DNA of 64,000 nucleotides from Acidobacteriota bacterium. Lineage in GTDB: Bacteria > Acidobacteriota > Blastocatellia > Pyrinomonadales > Pyrinomonadaceae. The translations under genes and the position numbers were made by a program. Positions 43,880 through 55,310 of this stretch are shown piece by piece. The DNA lies in assembly GCA_020199995.1 (NCBI GenBank), contig JAIVJM010000002.1:1-64000 (forward strand), written 5' to 3'. Below the pieces are notes generated by a model. It saw only the letters and a list, made by a program, of their open reading frames with translations. It was not told the DNA's origin and did not search any database. The first letter of the stretch is position 1. Every line of letters starts with the position of its first letter.

Positions 43880-43963
43880 CAGAAGTCCGCAACGCAGAAC
43901 GATGAACGAATAGCATCCGCCTCGTCTTTCAGTTCATCGTTCATCGTTGCGGACTTCTGCGTT
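43880..43963. repeat. Inverted repeat, CAGAAGTCCGCAACG type (copy 2)
   Basis: The arms CAGAAGTCCGCAACG (43880) and CGTTGCGGACTTCTG (43945-43959) extend inward through CGATGAAC and GTTCATCG. The loop differs from copy 1 at 37.1 kb, but the stem is the same sequence. The stop codon of the cyclic glucan synthase gene falls inside the right arm, so that protein's last residues (NAEVRNDER) are repeat-encoded. Confidence 0.85.
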
Positions 43964-46900
43964 GGTCATTGCGCCGCTTCGGCGCGCCGCCTCGCCCTCC
44001 GGCGTCGCCTTTGGCTCGCCGAGCACGACGCGCACCTCATGACGCGCGCCGTCGTCCGCGAGCGCGACCTCGCCCGAGGGCTGCGCGACGCCGTCCACTT
44101 CGACGCTTCTCACGCCGCGGCTCAGTCCGTGCGGGTTCTCGACCCTGATCGAGTAGCGCGCGGTCTTGTAGCGGTATTCTATCTCGTACTCGCGCCAGCC
44201 GCGCGGGATACAGGGGTCGAGCCGCAGCGTCTCACCGCGCAGCCGGAAGCCGAGGATGAATTCAAGGCCCGCGCGGTACATCCAACTGGCCGAGCCCGTG
44301 TACCACGTCCAGCCGCCGCGCCCCGTGTGCGGCCAGACGGCGTAGATGTCGGCGGCGGCGACGTAAGGCTCGACCTTGTACTTGTGCATCCCGGCGCGCG
44401 TCGAGCCGTGGTTGACCGGATTGAGGAGCGCGAAGAGCTCGCCCGCGCGGTCGCCGTCGCCCAAAAGCGCGTAGGCGATCAGAACCCACAGCGCGGCGTG
44501 CGTGTACTGCCCGCCGTTCTCGCGCACGCCCGGGACGTAGCCCTTGATGTAGCCGGGGTCGAGCGCGCCGCGGTCGAAGGGCGGCGTGAAGAGGATGACG
44601 AGACCGTCGCCGCGGCGGATGAGGAACTCTTCGACCGCCGCCATCGCGCGCTGCGTGCGGTGCGCGTCAGCCGCGCCCGAGATGACGCCCCACGTCTGCG
44701 CGATGGAATCAATGCGGCACTCCTCGTTCTGCGCCGAGCCGAGCGGCGTGCCGTCGTCGAAGTAGGCGCGCCTGTACCAGTCGCCGTCCCACGCCTCGCC
44801 TTCGAGCGCCTGTTTGAGATTCAAAGTGTGTGCGAGGTAAGTCTTGGCACGGGCATCGTCGCCGCGCGTCTCGCTGAACGGCGCGAACTGCGTGAGCGTC
44901 GTGTGGAGAAACCAGCCGACCCAGACGCTCTCGCCCTGCCCGAGGTTTCCGACGCGGTTCATGCCGTCGTTCCAGTCGCCCGAACCCATCAGGGGCAGCC
45001 CGTGCGCGCCGACCTTCAAGCTCCGGTCGAGGGCGCGCGCGCAGTGCTCGTAGATGGTTGCCGACTCGGCGGAGACCGTGGGCTGCGTGTAGGATTCGTC
45101 CTCGCCTTCCGCCAGCGGCGGCGCTTCGACGAACGGGACGACTTCGTCGAGCACGCCTCGGTCGCCCGTCACGCCCACATAAAAGCTCACGACGTAGGGG
45201 AGCCACAAAAGGTCGTCCGAGAAGCGCGTGCGGACGCCGCGGCCCGTCGGGGGGTGCCACCAGTGCTGCACGTCGCCCTCTGGAAATTGGTGCGCGGCGG
45301 CGCGCAGAATCTGCGCGCGCGCGAGGTCGGGCCTCGAGTAGACGATTGCCATCACGTCCTGCAACTGGTCGCGGAAGCCGTAGGCTCCGCCCGACTGGTA
45401 GAAGGCCGAGCGCGCCCAGACGCGGCAGGCTAAGGTCTGGCAGAGCAGCCAGCGGTTGAGAATCGTGTCCATCGCCGCGTCGGGCGTGCGCACCTGAACG
45501 GTCGTGAGCGTCTCGTCCCACTGCGCCACGACGCGCTCGAAGGCTTCGCCGACCGCGCCGGGCCGGCGAAATCGTGTGACCAGAGCGCGCGCCGCCTCGC
45601 GGCTCTCGCTTTCGCCGAGGAGGAAGAAGACCTCGCGCACTTCGCCCGGCGCGAGCTCGACTTCCGCCTGAAGGGCCACGCAGGGGTCGAGCCCCGCGCC
45701 CGCGCGCCCCGAGAGCCGCGCGCGCCTCAGGGCGGCGGGGCGCGCGAGACTGCCGTTGCGCCCGACGAACTCTTTGCGGTCGCAGGTCAGCGTCCGTTTC
45801 TCAACGCTCACGTCGGCGAAGGCGACCCTCCCGGCAAACTCGTTGTTGTAAGGGTTGCGCGCGAAGATGGCGCCGCTCTCTTCGTCCACTTCGGTGACAA
45901 CGTAAGGCGCGGACGCGCCGCGACTCAAGCCGAGCACCAGCTCGTTGTAGCCCGTCACGGAGAGGAGGCGGCGGCGGTCCGTTTGGTTGCGCAGGCGGAG
46001 GACGGAGATTTTGACGGTCGCGTCCGAGGGGACGAAGAGCAGCAGCTCCTGCGAGATGCCGTGGCTCGTGTGCTCGAAGACCGTGTACCCTTGGCCGTGG
46101 CGCACGACGTAGGGCTCGGCCTCGCGGATGGGGAGAGGCGTCGGCGTCCACGTCGCGCCCGTCTCTTCATCGCGCAGGTAGATGACCTCGCCGGGCGGGT
46201 CGCTCACGGCGTCGTTCGACCATGGCGTAAGGCGGTTCTCGCGGCTGTTCACGGACCACGTATAGCCCGCGCCCGTCTCCGTCACCTGAAAGCCGAAGTC
46301 GTGCTCGTTGGCGATGACGTTCGTCCACGGCGCGGGCGTCCACTGCCCTTCGCCGAGCACGGTCACGTACTCACGCCCGCCCGGGCTGAAGCCGCCGAGC
46401 CCGTTGAAGAATGAGAGGTCGGGAGTCTGCGCGGGCGGCGCGGGGTAGGTCCGCGAGGGCGCGCGCGGCACGAAAGCGGCGGGCAGCTCCTCTTCGATCT
46501 CGCGGCGCACGAGCTGCTCTTCGAGCGTCCCGCGCTCGGGCACGATGACGACGCGCGCGACCGCGTGGAGCAGAATCCGGTCGGCCTCGGGCATCACGTC
46601 GGCGCGACGCAGGAAGACGCCGCCCGGCTTGTCCTGCAAGGCCTGCGCGCCGCTCGCGCGGACCAGCGCCTGCAACTCTTCCTGAAGGGCCTGAATGTAG
46701 CTCGGCGGGTGGTCGTTGAGGATGACGAGGTCAATCGCCAGCCCCTTGAGGCGCAGGTAGCCGTGGTTGCGCAGCAGCTCCCGCACCACGTTCATGTCCT
46801 CAGTCTTATCAACGCGCACCAGCACGACGGGCAGGTCGCCGCTGATGCCGTAGGGCCAGAGGCCCGACTGCGCACGCGTGTTCAAGGCGAGCACATGCGA

Positions 46901-49900
46901 GCGCGGCCTCAGCGATGGGTCGGAATAGAGCACGCGCCCGGCGAGGCGCTGGAAGAGGTGCGCCTCTTCAGCGTCGATGTTGTGGTGGCGCATCTCGACC
47001 TGCGCCTGCGTCCATGCGAGCTGCGCCGCGCGCTCGAAGATCGAAACGTCGTGATACTTGTCGGCGAGAGCATGTGCCTCTTCGCGCGAGCGCGCTAAGG
47101 CCGTGGTGAAGGTCAGGCGCGCCGTCTCGCCGGGTTGGAGGCGGACTCTGCGGCGGAGCGAGAAGACGGGGTCGAGCACCGCGCCCGTGGTGTTCGAGAG
47201 CGGGCGGTCTTCGAGCACGGCGACGGGGTCTGCCGCGCTGTGGCCGCGCCCGACGAAGCGGCTGCGATCGGTCTCGTACTGAATCGCGCCGATTGCCTGC
47301 CCCTCGGTGACGACGACGTGGACGCCGTAGACAGGCTCGTCTTTGGCCGAGCGCGGGCGGCGGCGCGCGATGAGCGCGTCCTCGGCGCCGACGAACTCGG
47401 TCTCGACGAAGAGGTTGCTGAAGGCCGGGTGCGCCGCGTCCGCCGCGAGCGGCGCGAGCACCCACTCGCCGTAGCTCGTGACCTCGATCTCGCGCACGCG
47501 CGACGACTGGTTGGTGAGAGAGAGGCGGCGCACCTCGGCCTCGTCCTCGGGCGTGACGATGATCTCGGTGTGCGTCAGAATTCCCGCATCGGCCTGCCGG
47601 AAATCAACCTTGTCTTCGGCGAAAATCACCTCGTAGGACTTCGGCCTCCGGCCCACGGGCTGGTAGCCGGCGGACCAGACCGCGCCGCTCCGCACATCGC
47701 GCAGGTAGAAGAACGAGCCGTAATTGTCGCGCGTCACGTCCTCGCGCCAGCGCGTTACGGCGAGGCCGCGGCACGCCGAGTAGCCCGCGCCGGCGGTCGT
47801 GACCATCACTGAATAAGTGCCGTTCGAGAGCAGTTGCGTGCGCGGCGTCGGCAGGTCGGGCGAGTCGTAGCCGCGCGTCACGAACCCGGTCAGCCCGCGC
47901 ACGACGCGGCCCGACATGACCTCCTCGGCGCGCGGGTGCGACGCCGGGATGCCGCGCGGGACGCGCTCCTGCAACAAAAGCTCGGTCGCCTGCACCAACG
48001 GCTCGGCGTGGAAGCGCCGCCGCATCGCGTCCGCGTTCAAGAGGTTGTCGAGCGCGACGAGGCTCATGCCCTGATGGTGCGCCATGAAGGCGCGGATGAG
48101 CGCGCGCTTCTGGTTCTGCGGCAGGCGCTCGGGCGTGTAGTCAATCGCCTCGTAATAGCCGAAGCGCGCGAGCGCGCCTTCGCGTTCGAGGCGGCGCAGG
48201 TTCACGGCGGCGCGACGCGGCGCGACTAAGGCCGCGAGCATCGTCGCGTAGGGGGCGACGACGAGGTCTTCGGCGAGCCCGCGCTTGAGGCCGAGCCCCG
48301 GCACGCCGAAGGGCGCGTACTGGTAGTTCAACTGGAGGTCGCGCCCGTTGTAGGCCGACTCCGAGATGCCCCACGGGACGCCGCGCTCTTCGCCGTACTC
48401 GATCTGCCGCCCGACGATTGCGCCGTATGTCTCGTGCAGCAGAGTCCGCTCGTAGTCGCGCATCACCAAGAGCGGCATGAGGTACTCGAACATCGTCCCC
48501 GTCCAGGAGATGAGCGCGCGCCCGCCGTCCACGGGCGTGAGCTTGCGGCCCAGACGGAACCAGTGCTCCTGCGGGACGTCGCCCTTCGCGATGGCGGCGA
48601 AGCTGGCGAGGCGCGACTCGGAGGCGAAGAGGTCGTAGAAGGAGTTGTCGGCGCGCGCGTCCGTGACGTTATAGCCGATGCGGAAGACCTTGCGCTCGGA
48701 ATCGAGCAGGAACTTGAAGTCGGTCTCGTCGAAGACGCGCTGGCACGCGCCCGCCAGCACCGCGGCGCGCGCGACGAGCGCGGCGACCGCGGCGGCGGCG
48801 TCTTCGACGCTGCGGCGGACTAAGGCGAGCGCCCCGCGCGCCGCCGCGCGCGACTGCTCGTCAGCCGGTGTGCTCCGCTCGACCTCGACGCCGAGGTCTG
48901 AGAGCTGCGCCAGCGCCTCCTCGTAGAGCGCGGCCAACCGCGCGGGCGCGTATGTTTCGTCCAGCGAGCGCGCCGTCTCTTCCCAGCGGGCAAGCTGTTC
49001 GGCGGGGCAGAAACTGACGAGCGGCGCGAGCTGCGCGGCGAGCGTGAAGCTCTCGCGCGTGAGGTCGTCGAGGTCGCGCGCGAGGTTCTGCGTCTGCCGC
49101 CGGAGCGCGCCGAGCCAGAAGCGCAGCTCCGCAAAAGCCTCCTCGCCCTGCTCGTGCGAGAGCGCGCCGACGATGTCTTCGATGACGGAGGCGTCGCGCG
49201 CGAGCGCGTCGAAGACGGCAGACCACCCGCTCAGAGTATGGGGCGGCGCGCCCGCGATGAGCTGGGCGAGGCGCTCAAGCTCTTCGCGCAACTGTTTGAC
49301 GCCGACGCCCCCCGTGCGCGCGAGCACCGCGCCGAGCCGCGACGCCTCCTCGCGCGCGAGCGCGACGGCGTCCGCCAGCCCTTCGAGCGTGCGCGCGCCA
49401 AAGAGCTCGCAGTCCGGCAGCTCGACGCACGCCTGCTTGACGGCGAGGAGGTGTCCGACGAGGTTGCCGCTGTCCACGGTCGAGACATACTGCGGCGCGA
49501 GCGGCTCCAGCGTGCGCGTGTCGTACCAGTTGAAGAAGTGGCCGCGGAAACGCGGCAGGCGTTCGAGCGTCTTGAAGGTCAAAGAGAGGCGCTCGACGAG
49601 TTCGAGCGTCCCCATGTAGCCGAAGTCGTGCGCGGCGACGGTCGAAAGCAGCAGCAGCCCCACGTTGGTCGGCGAGGTGCGGTGCGCGATGGCGGGCCGC
49701 GGGTCTTCCTGAAAATTGTCGGGGGGCAGCCAGTGGTCTTCCTCGCCGACGAAGCTCTCGAAGAAGCGCCACGTGCGCCGCGCGATGAGGCGCAAGGCGT
49801 GCGTCTCCGCCGCCGAGAGCCGCTCGCGCGCCGGAGAGAGACGGCGGCTCATGCGGTAGGCGACGAGCGGCGAGAGCGCCCACGCCAGCACGAGCGGTGC

Positions 49901-52867
49901 GGCGACCGCGAGCGAGGCGGGGCGCAGCAGCAGCACAGTCGCGCCCGCGGCGAGCGCCACCGCGACGGCGGGCCACATGAAGCGGAAGTAGCTGGCGGCG
50001 GTCATCGCCGTCCCCTGCTCGGCCTGCGCGGCGGTCGTCCATTCGAGCAGCCGGCGGCGCGAGACGAGCTTGCGCCAGAGCGTGCGCGCGACGGCGTCGG
50101 CCATCAGGCCGGCCTGATGCGCGAGGAAGATGACGGAGAGCGCGACCTGCGCCGTGTTCGTCAGCAGGTCGCCCCAGACGCTCCAGAAGTGGCTCGTCCA
50201 AGGGATGCCGCGCGGGTGGAGCAGAAGACTCGTCGTGACGTGCGCGTAGACCGGGAAGGCGAGCGTGAGGACGACAAAAAGCATCCACAGCCCGACTGAT
50301 CCGGGCCACAGAGTCCACGCGGCGACGAGCCACACGAGCGTCGCGGGCGCGAAGAGGCTGCGCCGCAGGTTGTCGAAAATCTTCCAGCGCGCCGCGAGCG
50401 GAAGGCGGTTGCGGACGCTGCGGCCTTGCGCGCCCGGGACGCGCGGCAGAAGCCAGCGCGCGATCTGCCAGTCGCCTCGCGTCCAGCGGTGCTGGCGCTT
50501 GGCGTAGGTGTCGTAGTGCGCCGGGTAGTCGTCCAGCAGCTCGATGTCGGTGACGAGCGCGGCGCGCGTGTAGAGCGACTCGAAGAGGTCGTGGCTGAGG
50601 AGCGCGTTCTCGGGCACGCGCCCTTCGAGCGCGCGCGCGAAGGCGTCCACGTCGTAGAGCCCCTTGCCCGTGAAGCTGCCTTCGCCGAAGAGGTCTTGAT
50701 AAACGTCGGAGGCGGCGGTCGTGTAAGGGTCAATGCCGGTGTTGCCCGAGAAGACGCGCGCGAACGAAGAGCGCGCGGCGCTCTCCAGAGAGACGCTGAC
50801 GCGCGGCTGGAGGATGCCGTAGCCGCGCACGACCCGGCCCGCGCCCGGGTCGTAGTGCGGGCGGTTTAAGGGGTGGTGCGCGACCGCGACCAGACGCCGC
50901 GCCGCATCGCGCGGGAGCTGCGTGTCGGAGTCGAGCGTGATGACGTAGCGGACTTTCGAGAGCAGCGAAGCGGGGGCGGTCGAGACCGCAAACGTCGTGT
51001 CGCGCGCGCCGCGCAGCAGGCGGTTGAACTCTTCGAGCTTGCCGCGCTTGCGCTCCCAGCCCATCCACTTCGCTTCGCCCTCGTTCCAGAGGCGGCGGCG
51101 CGTGAAGAGGTGGAAGCGCTTCGGCGCTTCGCCTTCGCCGCCGCGGTGCCGCGCGTTCAGCTCTTCGACGCCGCCGAAGGCCAGCCCCAGCAGCGCCTCG
51201 TCTTCTTCGATCACTTCCGCCCCGGCGTCGCCGAAATCCCCGAGCAGCGCGAAGTAGAGATTTTCGTCCTGATTGGCGAGGTAGTGGACTTCCAATTTCT
51301 CGACCAGCTCGCGGACGCCCTCCGGGCTCGTCAAAAGAGTCGGCACGACGACCATCGTGAGCGCGTCGGCGGGCACTCCATCCTCGCTCTCCATCGAGGG
51401 CAGCAGGCGTGGCGCGAGGAGGTGCGTCACATCCCAGTTGAGCACGCTCAGGGCGAGGTCACTGGCCGGGACGAGCGAGAGCAGGACGAGGGCGGCGAGC
51501 ATCACGACGCCCGCGCCCGAGGCATAAGCGGCGAAGGCCAGCAGGACGACGACGAGCGCGGTCATCAGGGCGAGCGTGCCGAGGTAGAAAGGCGTCGGGT
51601 GCCTGAGGACGAAGCGGAGCACGCGCTCGCGCGGGCGCGGGCGGTAGGCGAAACTCCGCTCCAGCTCCTTCGAGCCTTCGTCTATGAGGTAGAACCCGAC
51701 ATGGTCGCGCCCGGCCTCGGTGTCGCGCCCGGCCCCGGAATCGCGCCCGGCCTCGGTGTCGCGCCCGCCCGCGGCCAGCTCGACGGCCCCGCGCGCCACT
51801 TCGATTTCGGTCGCCTTCGTGCGCTTGCTGACGCGCTCGACGACGTGCCGGTAGCGGTCGCGCGTCTGGAAGCTCATCAGCGCATAGACGCCCGCGGGGT
51901 CTTCCGCGAGCACGGGGTCAACGAGGCTCACGCTCTCGAAGAAGTCGCGCCAGTCGAGCGTCGAGAGCAGGCGCATCGAGGTGATGATGTTGCCGACCGT
52001 GACCTGCGCGGCGGCCTGCCGCTGATGTTCGAGGTGGACGATCTGCTCGGTCGTCTGGCCGCGCTTGCCGAGGTGACGTTCGAGCCAGTCGAAGACGGGC
52101 GCGAGCGAGGGGTCCTGCTCGCGCAGACGCTGCGTGAGCTGGACGACGAAGGCGCGGTCTAAATCCTCGCGGCGGCCCACGCGCCCGGCGAGCTGCGGCA
52201 CAAGCGCCTCGGGCTGGCGGCTCGCAATCTCGAGCAGCCGGTCGGCGAGCGCGTCAGCCTCCTCGCGCTCCTCGCGCGCCGCCACGATGCGCGTGGCGAG
52301 CCGCGCAAGATTTTCGACGAGCGCGAGCCTGAGCGTGATCGCGACGGCCCACAGCTCGCCCATCGTGAGCGGCGCTTTCGCCTGATAGGCCGTGATGAAG
52401 CGCCGCAGCGTCTCGGTTTCCAGCCGGCTGTCGGTGTGCGCGATGAGCGCCAGCGAGACGGCGTAGATGCGCGGGTAGCCCTCCAGCTCGCCGCGCACGA
52501 GCTTGGGCAGCTCCCTGTAATAGCCTGCGGGGAGGTCTTCGCGGATTTCGCGCAGCTGCTCTTCGACGATGTGGAAATTATCCACCAGCCATTCGGCGGC
52601 GGGCGAGATGGAATGCTCTTTGCGGATGGCCTCGGCGAGTGCGCGGTAGGCCGCGACCAACTGCCGACCGTTCTCTTCGAGGCGCGGCAGGAGGCGGCGA
52701 CCACGGCGCGGCCCGGCCGAGACTTCGTGCTCCGAGGCGAGCGCGGCGGCGTACTGTTCGAGGCGCTCGACACTGAACAGCTCTTCGCGAATCGGCGGCT
52801 CGTCGCGCGCCTCCGCAGCGCCGCCCGAGCGCCCGAACAGGAATGCCAGAAGTGGTGTGGTGCTCAT
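43934..52867 (-). CDS. ndvB: Cyclic beta-1,2-glucan synthase (NdvB/ChvB type)
   Basis: The protein is 2977 residues, the usual size of this giant enzyme. After a helical N-terminal region come two membrane helices (about 420-475). A GT84 transferase follows with LDSDTQLPRDAARRL and KRQHRWTRGDWQIARWLLPR, and then more helices. A glycoamylase-like block (GYMGTLELVERLSLTFKTLERLPRFRGHFFNWYDT) and two C-terminal GH94 phosphorylase-like halves come next, with GSGDWNDGMNRVG holding the catalytic Asp. It elongates and cyclises periplasmic beta-1,2-glucan from UDP-glucose. An Asp/Arg/Gly tandem repeat lies at about residues 363-386. The gene stands alone. Confidence 0.96.
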   Translation of the reverse strand: MSTTPLLAFLFGRSGGAAEARDEPPIREELFSVERLEQYAAALASEHEVSAGPRRGRRLLPRLEENGRQLVAAYRALAEAIRKEHSISPAAEWLVDNFHIVEEQLREIREDLPAGYYRELPKLVRGELEGYPRIYAVSLALIAHTDSRLETETLRRFITAYQAKAPLTMGELWAVAITLRLALVENLARLATRIVAAREEREEADALADRLLEIASRQPEALVPQLAGRVGRREDLDRAFVVQLTQRLREQDPSLAPVFDWLERHLGKRGQTTEQIVHLEHQRQAAAQVTVGNIITSMRLLSTLDWRDFFESVSLVDPVLAEDPAGVYALMSFQTRDRYRHVVERVSKRTKATEIEVARGAVELAAGGRDTEAGRDSGAGRDTEAGRDHVGFYLIDEGSKELERSFAYRPRPRERVLRFVLRHPTPFYLGTLALMTALVVVLLAFAAYASGAGVVMLAALVLLSLVPASDLALSVLNWDVTHLLAPRLLPSMESEDGVPADALTMVVVPTLLTSPEGVRELVEKLEVHYLANQDENLYFALLGDFGDAGAEVIEEDEALLGLAFGGVEELNARHRGGEGEAPKRFHLFTRRRLWNEGEAKWMGWERKRGKLEEFNRLLRGARDTTFAVSTAPASLLSKVRYVITLDSDTQLPRDAARRLVAVAHHPLNRPHYDPGAGRVVRGYGILQPRVSVSLESAARSSFARVFSGNTGIDPYTTAASDVYQDLFGEGSFTGKGLYDVDAFARALEGRVPENALLSHDLFESLYTRAALVTDIELLDDYPAHYDTYAKRQHRWTRGDWQIARWLLPRVPGAQGRSVRNRLPLAARWKIFDNLRRSLFAPATLVWLVAAWTLWPGSVGLWMLFVVLTLAFPVYAHVTTSLLLHPRGIPWTSHFWSVWGDLLTNTAQVALSVIFLAHQAGLMADAVARTLWRKLVSRRRLLEWTTAAQAEQGTAMTAASYFRFMWPAVAVALAAGATVLLLRPASLAVAAPLVLAWALSPLVAYRMSRRLSPARERLSAAETHALRLIARRTWRFFESFVGEEDHWLPPDNFQEDPRPAIAHRTSPTNVGLLLLSTVAAHDFGYMGTLELVERLSLTFKTLERLPRFRGHFFNWYDTRTLEPLAPQYVSTVDSGNLVGHLLAVKQACVELPDCELFGARTLEGLADAVALAREEASRLGAVLARTGGVGVKQLREELERLAQLIAGAPPHTLSGWSAVFDALARDASVIEDIVGALSHEQGEEAFAELRFWLGALRRQTQNLARDLDDLTRESFTLAAQLAPLVSFCPAEQLARWEETARSLDETYAPARLAALYEEALAQLSDLGVEVERSTPADEQSRAAARGALALVRRSVEDAAAAVAALVARAAVLAGACQRVFDETDFKFLLDSERKVFRIGYNVTDARADNSFYDLFASESRLASFAAIAKGDVPQEHWFRLGRKLTPVDGGRALISWTGTMFEYLMPLLVMRDYERTLLHETYGAIVGRQIEYGEERGVPWGISESAYNGRDLQLNYQYAPFGVPGLGLKRGLAEDLVVAPYATMLAALVAPRRAAVNLRRLEREGALARFGYYEAIDYTPERLPQNQKRALIRAFMAHHQGMSLVALDNLLNADAMRRRFHAEPLVQATELLLQERVPRGIPASHPRAEEVMSGRVVRGLTGFVTRGYDSPDLPTPRTQLLSNGTYSVMVTTAGAGYSACRGLAVTRWREDVTRDNYGSFFYLRDVRSGAVWSAGYQPVGRRPKSYEVIFAEDKVDFRQADAGILTHTEIIVTPEDEAEVRRLSLTNQSSRVREIEVTSYGEWVLAPLAADAAHPAFSNLFVETEFVGAEDALIARRRPRSAKDEPVYGVHVVVTEGQAIGAIQYETDRSRFVGRGHSAADPVAVLEDRPLSNTTGAVLDPVFSLRRRVRLQPGETARLTFTTALARSREEAHALADKYHDVSIFERAAQLAWTQAQVEMRHHNIDAEEAHLFQRLAGRVLYSDPSLRPRSHVLALNTRAQSGLWPYGISGDLPVVLVRVDKTEDMNVVRELLRNHGYLRLKGLAIDLVILNDHPPSYIQALQEELQALVRASGAQALQDKPGGVFLRRADVMPEADRILLHAVARVVIVPERGTLEEQLVRREIEEELPAAFVPRAPSRTYPAPPAQTPDLSFFNGLGGFSPGGREYVTVLGEGQWTPAPWTNVIANEHDFGFQVTETGAGYTWSVNSRENRLTPWSNDAVSDPPGEVIYLRDEETGATWTPTPLPIREAEPYVVRHGQGYTVFEHTSHGISQELLLFVPSDATVKISVLRLRNQTDRRRLLSVTGYNELVLGLSRGASAPYVVTEVDEESGAIFARNPYNNEFAGRVAFADVSVEKRTLTCDRKEFVGRNGSLARPAALRRARLSGRAGAGLDPCVALQAEVELAPGEVREVFFLLGESESREAARALVTRFRRPGAVGEAFERVVAQWDETLTTVQVRTPDAAMDTILNRWLLCQTLACRVWARSAFYQSGGAYGFRDQLQDVMAIVYSRPDLARAQILRAAAHQFPEGDVQHWWHPPTGRGVRTRFSDDLLWLPYVVSFYVGVTGDRGVLDEVVPFVEAPPLAEGEDESYTQPTVSAESATIYEHCARALDRSLKVGAHGLPLMGSGDWNDGMNRVGNLGQGESVWVGWFLHTTLTQFAPFSETRGDDARAKTYLAHTLNLKQALEGEAWDGDWYRRAYFDDGTPLGSAQNEECRIDSIAQTWGVISGAADAHRTQRAMAAVEEFLIRRGDGLVILFTPPFDRGALDPGYIKGYVPGVRENGGQYTHAALWVLIAYALLGDGDRAGELFALLNPVNHGSTRAGMHKYKVEPYVAAADIYAVWPHTGRGGWTWYTGSASWMYRAGLEFILGFRLRGETLRLDPCIPRGWREYEIEYRYKTARYSIRVENPHGLSRGVRSVEVDGVAQPSGEVALADDGARHEVRVVLGEPKATPEGEAARRSGAMTNAEVRNDER

Positions 52868-53935: not shown

Positions 53936-54095
53936 AGCTCGGCCCCTCCCCGCTCACAAACTCTATCGGACTCCCACGCATTGAACCTTCGGCGCGAGGT
54001 CTGAGTCAAACCGGAGCCGGGGCGGCGGCGGGGCTTTTTTAAGTTTGGCCGGGCCGCCCGATAGGGGTATCCTCCCGCTGAGGGAGGGCTCGCGG

Positions 54096-54506
54096 GTGAA
54101 AATATTCTGCTGCGTGGCTGCGCTGCTGATGTTCGGGATGTTCGATGCGGACGGGCGCGAAGGCGCGCGCGGGCGGGTCGAGACTTTCGAACTCAAGCCC
54201 GGCCGGGAGAAGCTCATCCGGAGCGCGGGCATCCGCATCAAGCTCGTCGAAGTGGCCGAGGACTCACGCTGCCCGCAGGGCGTCAACTGCATCTGGGCGG
54301 GGAACGTGCGGGTCGTGCTGCGCATCAAGGCCCACGGCAGGAGCACGAGACTGGAGAAGCTCAACTCCGCGACCGAGCCCATGGCGCTCGCGCTCAAGGG
54401 GCGGCGCCTCTCGATCTCGAAGGTCAGCCCGTCCAAGCTCAACGACCAAAAAATCAAGCCGGAAGACTACATCGTCACCCTCACGCTCTCGGCCCCTCCG
54501 AAATAA
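54096..54506 (+). CDS. Small secreted protein with conserved Cys pair, function unknown
   Basis: I place the start at the GTG at 54096, following GAGGGAGGGCTCGC, giving 136 residues (VKIFCCVAALLMFGMF...). An upstream TTG at 54045 is possible but adds a Pro-rich non-hydrophobic leader. The mature part contains FELKPGREKLIRSAGIRIKLVEVAEDSRCPQGVNCIWAGNVRVVLRI, a motif with a likely C-C disulphide seen in small bacterial secreted proteins, and a beta-rich tail ending EDYIVTLTLSAPPK. No function is assigned. Confidence 0.75.
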   Translation: MKIFCCVAALLMFGMFDADGREGARGRVETFELKPGREKLIRSAGIRIKLVEVAEDSRCPQGVNCIWAGNVRVVLRIKAHGRSTRLEKLNSATEPMALALKGRRLSISKVSPSKLNDQKIKPEDYIVTLTLSAPPK

Positions 54507-54761: not shown

Positions 54762-55310
54762 TTAATCCCCGCGTGCCCTCCAGTAGCGCGCGGCGTACTT
54801 GCCGTAGATGAACTCTCTGCCGAGCGGCCCCCACGAGCGCGAGTCGCTTGAGTTGTCGCGGTTGTCGCCCAACGCGAAGTAGCTCTCCTCGGGCAGGCTG
54901 ACGGGCGCGAGGTCGAGGAGAGCTTGATTGCGTTCCGGGTCGAGGTACGGCTCCGCGAGGGGGCTGCCGTCTATCAGCACGCGCCCGCCGCGGACTTCGA
55001 CGACTTCACCGGGCAGGCCGACGATGCGCTTGATATAACTCTTCGAGGGCTCCGGCGGGTAGTGGAAGACGACGATGTCGCCGCGCTTGAGCCCGCCGAA
55101 TCTTCTGCTGACGAGAATCCGGTCGCCGTCGGCGAGCGCGGGGAGCATCGCCGTCCCTTCGACCTTCACCGGCAGCGCGAGGTAAAGCAGTGTCAACGCG
55201 ATGCCGACCGGCACGAGCAGTCCGACGAAGACGATGGCCAACACGACCACCTTCCCCGTCCCGCCCCGCCCGCGCTTTTCTCGCTCCTCCATTTTGACTT
55301 CGCTCGCCAT
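54762..55310 (-). CDS. lepB: Signal peptidase I homologue with Ala at the catalytic Ser position
   Basis: This 182-residue protein has one N-terminal membrane helix (VVVLAIVFVGLLVPVGIALTLLYLAL) followed by VKVEGTAMLPALADGDRI, where signal peptidases have xSMxPTL. Residue 54, aligned with the catalytic serine, is Ala (codon 55149-55151). The general base Lys 94 (SYIKRIVGLPGE), the GDI(V)VF strand and the GDNRDNSSDSRSWG box are intact. Thr 53 is adjacent. It may be inactive or non-canonical, or use another nucleophile. I cannot tell whether this is a lineage trait. A true lepB would have to exist elsewhere in the genome. Confidence 0.85.
   Translation of the reverse strand: MASEVKMEEREKRGRGGTGKVVVLAIVFVGLLVPVGIALTLLYLALPVKVEGTAMLPALADGDRILVSRRFGGLKRGDIVVFHYPPEPSKSYIKRIVGLPGEVVEVRGGRVLIDGSPLAEPYLDPERNQALLDLAPVSLPEESYFALGDNRDNSSDSRSWGPLGREFIYGKYAARYWRARGD

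What the first reader, a model, noticed from the sequence alone, without database searches (positions are those of the whole stretch)
55140..55160. Signal peptidase homologue with Ala at the catalytic Ser position
The motif VEGTAMLPAL has Ala where signal peptidase I enzymes have the nucleophilic Ser (SM.PTL), yet Lys 94, the GDNRDNSSDSR box and the fold are kept. Either the enzyme is catalytically silent and acts as a binding or regulatory protein, or it uses a shifted Thr, or this is a sequence error.
Basis: partly seen in the sequence, partly recalled or inferred. Interest (0 to 1): 0.5.

Follow-up and report, generated by a model that had tools for sequence, protein, structure and literature searches.

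The report
Signal peptidase paralogue lacking catalytic serine
This bacterium carries, next to a normal signal peptidase, a second copy whose cutting residue is replaced by alanine; related bacteria carry similarly altered copies, so it is probably a conserved non-cutting protein that binds peptides or regulates, not a sequencing error.

Summary
ORF 54762-55310 (-), 182 aa, is a family S26 signal peptidase (PF10502, TIGR02227) with Ala54 (GCG, 55149-55151) where the nucleophilic Ser belongs; Lys94 and GDNRDNSSDSR are intact. The same genome has a sister with intact Ser (C127, VEGTSMLP, 58% identical). At least 11 of 162 genomes of the class (three family-level groups) carry paralogues with Ala (7) or Gly (4) here and the Lys kept. 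With the catalytic column masked they form one clade (99/88) with three Ser-bearing members. All 14 share two independent markers: a 13-residue loop (16-26 in housekeeping enzymes) and Tyr/Phe172 (Ala in housekeeping rows). A subgroup are lipoprotein-like, at a conserved tatD-yajQ-S26-polyprenyl synthase locus. This argues against sequencing error; the preceding Thr is not conserved, which argues against a shifted nucleophile. Best reading: a pseudo-signal peptidase that keeps the peptide groove and binds without cutting, comparable to S. pyogenes SipA and S. aureus SpsA but with a different lesion (Ser to Ala/Gly, Lys kept). Inactivity and ligand are inferred, not shown. New variant of a known kind; NCBI's model would name it an active signal peptidase I.

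The parts
54762..55310 (-). S26 signal-peptidase-like ORF, 182 aa (pseudo-signal peptidase)
   Evidence: the only S26 match on the window's contig.
55149..55151 (-). [quoted passage not shown] coli Ser90, SpsB Ser36)
   Evidence: Ala or Gly in 11 of 14 members of its clade.
55134..55163 (-). Box B motif VEGTAMLPAL (residues 50-59)
55029..55031 (-). Codon of Lys94, the general-base position, intact
   Evidence: Invariant in all 11 Ala/Gly rows.
54837..54869 (-). Box E GDNRDNSSDSR (residues 148-158), intact
   Evidence: G148, D149, R151, S154, D156, S157 and R158 are kept in all 11 Ala/Gly rows.
55179..55259 (-). N-terminal membrane helix, residues 18-44, running straight into the first strand
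   Evidence: AlphaFold2 secondary structure and hydrophobic sequence.
54795..54797 (-). Tyr172, clade marker: Tyr/Phe in all 14 clade members, Ala in the housekeeping rows
55083..55121 (-). Shortened loop, residues 64-76 region (13 positions from D63 to R76, against 16-26 in housekeeping enzymes)

Best explanation
A membrane-anchored pseudo-signal peptidase. An S26 signal peptidase duplicated in this class of Acidobacteriota. In the copy the nucleophilic Ser was replaced by Ala or Gly, so peptide-bond cleavage is lost, while the fold, the Lys and the Lys-holding box E were kept by selection. Mechanism proposed: the protein sits on the periplasmic side of the membrane (a transmembrane helix here, a lipid anchor in other members) and binds an extended peptide, such as a signal peptide or the N-terminus of an exported protein, in its groove without cutting it. 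It would thereby chaperone, delay or present a client, or modulate the active LepB encoded elsewhere. Shown from sequence: the substitution, the kept residues, the clade, the purifying selection, the coexisting intact LepB. Inferred: absence of activity, groove binding, the client, the regulatory role.
For: Recurrence: Ala (7) or Gly (4) with Lys kept in at least 11 of 162 class genomes, in three family-level groups. Clade: 14 rows at 99/88 with the catalytic column masked, with two independent markers, loop length 13 and Tyr/Phe172. Selection: open frames; Ala-type trio pN 0.12-0.18 against pS 0.51-0.77, dN/dS 0.21 in the one unsaturated pair. Selective retention: 18 of the 39 columns that are at least 94% conserved in housekeeping enzymes are kept in all 11, among them K94, G148, S154, D156 and R158, whereas the Ser and Ala172 are never kept. 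Redundancy: an intact Ser LepB in the same genome. Synteny of the lipoprotein-like subgroup in six genomes. Signal-peptidase fold predicted with high confidence. Precedents: SipA keeps the groove, lacks the dyad and is essential for pilus polymerisation (PMC4049620); SpsA is inactive (PMC12445088).
Against: Three clade members still have Ser (G025, G092, G093), two of them at the syntenic locus, so the clade's function may not require inactivity. Distribution is patchy and branches are long, which also fits a dispensable, drifting copy. The gene neighbourhood of the window copy is not shared with relatives, so no partner is indicated. No activity or binding data exist.
Confidence: 0.72

Rival explanations
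1. Decaying paralogue: a surplus signal peptidase gene that lost its nucleophile and is drifting towards loss, with no selected function in its dead form.
For: Patchy occurrence, 11 of 162 genomes; long branches; about three changes of the Ser state in the clade; dN/dS about twice that of the neighbouring synthase.
Against: Eleven intact frames; seven of them aligned to the window protein at 41-50% identity with synonymous sites near saturation where measured, and K94 and box E invariant. The lipoprotein-like branch keeps its locus across genera.
Confidence: 0.15
2. Active enzyme with an unusual mechanism: Lys94 activates water directly, or another Ser/Thr acts as nucleophile.
For: Lys94 and the box E residues around it are kept, which is unexpected if the dyad is useless.
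Against: The preceding Thr is not conserved (T, V, A, K, Q, G). The invariant Ser residues (S91, S154, S157) include none that is new to the clade: S154 and S157 are conserved in ordinary enzymes, and KSYIKR, which holds S91, is their usual sequence here.
Confidence: 0.08
3. Sequencing or assembly error in the window: the true codon is a Ser codon (one base away).
For: The genome is a draft (88% complete, 352 contigs) and reads are not available.
Against: The protein belongs by sequence and by two other markers to the Ala/Gly clade, whose members in other genomes use several different Ala and Gly codons.
Confidence: 0.02

Closest known systems
SipA of Streptococcus pyogenes (PDB 4N31; PMC4049620)
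   Same: S26 fold, lost catalytic residue, proposed to bind rather than cut; a structural match of the window model.
   Different: SipA lost both residues (Asp48, Gly85), its Gly272 equivalent is Asn and its Ser278 equivalent is Arg. The window protein loses only Ser and keeps Lys, Gly148 and Ser154. No pilus or sortase gene was seen beside it.
SpsA of Staphylococcus aureus (PMC12445088)
   Same: Inactive type I signal peptidase paralogue beside an essential active one, SpsB.
   Different: SpsA is reported to lack two conserved catalytic residues; here one is lost. Different phylum.
Housekeeping signal peptidase I (LepB) of the same genome (L002, G000:C127)
   Same: 58% identical, same boxes B, D and E; both exceed the TIGR02227 cut-off.
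   Different: Has Ser (VEGTSMLP), a longer loop, and Ala at the position of Tyr172.

Membership tests
Bacterial signal peptidase I (S26A, LepB) as an active enzyme | Overall S26 sequence family and fold | tested here: met
   PF10502 1e-42, TIGR02227 140 bits (cut-off 47), AlphaFold2 model matching SpsB and LepB.
Bacterial signal peptidase I (S26A, LepB) as an active enzyme | Catalytic Ser in box B | tested here: not met
   Ala54, codon GCG at 55149-55151.
Bacterial signal peptidase I (S26A, LepB) as an active enzyme | General-base Lys in box D | tested here: met
   K94 in KSYIKRIVGLPG.
Bacterial signal peptidase I (S26A, LepB) as an active enzyme | Box E GDNR..S.DSR | tested here: met
   GDNRDNSSDSR 148-158.
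Bacterial signal peptidase I (S26A, LepB) as an active enzyme | Cleaves signal peptides | not testable with these tools
   Needs a complementation or cleavage assay.
Pseudo-signal peptidases of the SipA/SpsA kind | S26 fold with a disrupted Ser-Lys dyad | tested here: met
   Ser lost, Lys kept; fold match to 4n31.
Pseudo-signal peptidases of the SipA/SpsA kind | Both Ser and Lys lost (SipA Asp48/Gly85; SpsA lacks two residues) | tested here: not met
   Lys94 is kept in all 11 Ala/Gly rows.
Pseudo-signal peptidases of the SipA/SpsA kind | SipA: works in sortase-dependent pilus assembly (pilus genes nearby) | tested here: not met
   Neighbours are truA, a 153-aa ORF without Pfam match, and an EamA transporter.
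Acidobacteriota Ala/Gly S26 paralogue clade described here | 13-position loop from D63 to R76, Tyr/Phe172, one clade in a tree with the catalytic column masked | tested here: met

The most novel reading that the evidence does not exclude
A lineage-specific non-cleaving receptor for signal peptides or exported N-termini in a diderm phylum. The dyad is disarmed by a minimal Ser-to-Ala/Gly change with the Lys site kept intact, so that the groove holds clients in a cleavage-like pose and regulates or chaperones secretion; a lipid-anchored branch of it is fixed at a yajQ-polyprenyl synthase locus.
Probability: 0.3. Interest if true: 0.6.

Novelty: new variant of a known kind. Interest (0 to 1): 0.42.

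Why it matters
The inactive bacterial signal peptidase homologues found in the literature here are from Gram-positive bacteria. Here a clade in another phylum has lost only the nucleophile and kept the general base and its environment, which makes it a natural counterpart of a Ser-to-Ala trapping mutant and gives a direct way to ask what a signal peptidase groove does without cutting. It is also a practical warning: NCBI's equivalog model scores the Ala/Gly forms tested at 138-157 bits against a cut-off of 47, so they would be named as active signal peptidase I.

Tried and rejected
Shifted Thr nucleophile: rejected, position 53 is T, V, A, K, Q or G in the clade. Sequencing error: rejected as likely, because of the recurrence with different codons. 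Conserved neighbourhood of the window gene: none found; the tatD-yajQ-polyprenyl synthase locus is shared only by the lipoprotein-like branch. G040:C128 (L204) has the identical peptide GTAMLPALADGD but belongs to a different S24-like group with His instead of Lys, so it was not counted as an orthologue. A relation to pilus assembly as in SipA was considered; nothing in the neighbourhood suggests it. Whether the clade began dead and regained Ser, or lost Ser several times, could not be decided: three changes at least, long branches, 134 columns. Literature searches for inactive bacterial signal peptidases, and for signal peptidase I with Acidobacteria, found nothing on this clade in the open library held. 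A search for S90A binding mutants found nothing. Plasmid records hold only remote relatives, at most 41% identical in the best-ranked rows.

Full report
Observation. The minus-strand ORF 54762-55310 encodes 182 residues and is an S26 signal peptidase by every profile used: Pfam PF10502 (E 1e-42), NCBIfam TIGR02227 (140 bits, cut-off 47), and phmmer to S. aureus SpsB (E about 1e-19). Lys94 and GDNRDNSSDSR are present. The AlphaFold2 model (45-row alignment of window and fetched sequences) has mean pLDDT 92.8 and shows a helix (18-44) running into the first strand. Foldseek places it with SpsB, E. coli LepB and SipA.

Own genome. A search of the whole draft genome (88% complete, 352 contigs) gave S26 matches at four loci: the window gene; a 58% identical LepB on C127 with VEGTSMLP, Lys and box E intact; and two Ser-bearing matches (VPTGSM) on C4 and C187, the last on a 3.3-kb contig. 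So cleavage capacity does not depend on the window gene.

Recurrence. Homologues were collected from 60 relatives, from one scan of named genome contigs, from the class (162 genomes) and from 396 genomes of the phylum. Outside this group the nucleophile was Ser in the LepB-like rows. Eleven genomes have a short paralogue with Ala (7) or Gly (4) and the Lys kept: the window; G004, G018, G148 (Ala) and G088 (Gly) in its family; G045, G057 (Ala) and G155 (Gly) in a second family-level group; G056 (Ala), G037 and G048 (Gly) in a third. All but G155, a 73% complete genome, show a second, stronger-than-1e-25 S26 match; those read here have Ser. The match list was cut, so 11 is a lower bound. No relative outside the class passed the strict threshold (1e-58), but weaker ones could have been missed. 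That the class is Blastocatellia is an inference from genome features, not a tool result.

Clade. With the catalytic column masked and the membrane anchor left out, a careful tree puts all 11 Ala/Gly rows and three Ser rows (L127 from G025, L177 from G093, L185 from G092) in one clade with support 99/88. An earlier quick tree gave a similar grouping (SH-aLRT 83; L185 was not yet in it). Two features outside the masked column agree exactly with the clade. The stretch from D63 to R76 has 13 positions in all 14 members and 16-26 in housekeeping rows. Position 172 is Tyr or Phe in all 14 and Ala in all 51 housekeeping rows compared. The state of the nucleophile needs at least three changes on the tree. 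Whether Ser was lost several times, or lost once and regained, is open, since branches are long and only 134 columns were available.

Error and shifted nucleophile. The relatives' codons at this position include GCA, GCG, GCT and GGA, so a shared reading error is not credible, and the window protein shows the clade's other markers. The residue before Ala/Gly is T, V, A, K, Q or G, and the Thr is already part of the ordinary VEGTSM motif, so it gives no sign of being a new nucleophile. No Ser, Thr or Cys was found that is invariant in the Ala/Gly rows and new to them.

Constraint. Of 39 columns at least 94% conserved in housekeeping enzymes, 18 are kept in all 11 Ala/Gly rows: M55, P57, R76, P85, K94, R95, G109, E120, Y122, G148, D149, R151, S154, D156, S157, R158, G161, Y176. 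These include the Lys and the box E residues next to it. Other formerly conserved columns have loosened, such as positions 68, 81, 88 and 177. Among G004, G018 and G148, pN is 0.12-0.18 with pS 0.51-0.77. The one pair not saturated has dN/dS 0.21, against 0.09-0.13 for the next gene. So the protein is less constrained than its neighbours but is clearly selected. These figures are for the lipoprotein-like branch; no second member close to the window gene was found.

Two anchors. The window gene and the members of the other two family-level groups have a transmembrane helix. The branch in G004, G018, G148, G088, G092 and G093 instead begins with a short signal sequence and a lipobox-like Cys just before the first strand (read by eye from the sequences; no predictor was run). 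That branch sits at a conserved locus, tatD - yajQ (DUF520) - S26 - polyprenyl synthase, with Ala in three genomes, Gly in one and Ser in two. The window gene lies elsewhere, between truA and an EamA transporter gene, and shares no neighbours with the relatives.

Interpretation. The best-supported reading is a pseudo-signal peptidase: unable to cut, but kept for what its peptide groove binds. The keeping of the Lys site argues that the pocket's architecture still matters. Precedents exist. SipA of S. pyogenes has the groove without the dyad, shows no peptidase activity and is essential for pilus polymerisation (PMC4049620). SpsA of S. aureus is listed as inactive beside the essential SpsB (PMC12445088). 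A 2026 structural survey treats SipA as a family member with a changed ligand mode (PMC12984324). The present clade differs in losing Ser only, in its phylum, and in lacking a pilus context. What it binds, and that it does not cut, are inferences. Drift of a surplus copy is the main rival.

Verdict. Real and recurrent, a new variant of a known kind, and likely to be misnamed as signal peptidase I by current equivalog models.

Noticed in passing
L121-L125, L186-L193 (e.g. L122:1985+, L186:3065+): A second, remoter group of short S26 lipoprotein-like proteins in the same family of bacteria has mostly Ala, Gly or Asn at the Ser position and Phe, Gln, Met or Ser at the Lys position, i.e. both catalytic residues lost in most.
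   Followed up: partly
L204 (G040:C128:19645-19679), L199 (G046), L200 (G039): S24-like proteins with His in place of Lys and Ala at the Ser position; L204 has the identical peptide GTAMLPALADGD as the window although it belongs to another subfamily.
   Followed up: partly
L194 (G151:C35) and L198 (G151:C133): In one genome an S26 protein has VPTGAM with Lys changed to Ser, and the other LepB-like frame lacks the Ser stretch altogether; may be a bin error or a further case of loss.
   Followed up: no
L115:447-8309 and the same order in L118, L177, L185, L195, L196: Conserved locus tatD - yajQ - S26 lipoprotein-like gene - polyprenyl synthase - ORF without Pfam match, followed in most by an FG-GAP repeat protein and in several by another conserved ORF.
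   Followed up: partly
window 54045-54503 (+): 153-aa ORF beside the S26 gene without any Pfam match.
   Followed up: no
window 43934-52867 (-): A single 2977-aa ORF in the neighbourhood, not examined beyond the ORF listing.
   Followed up: no
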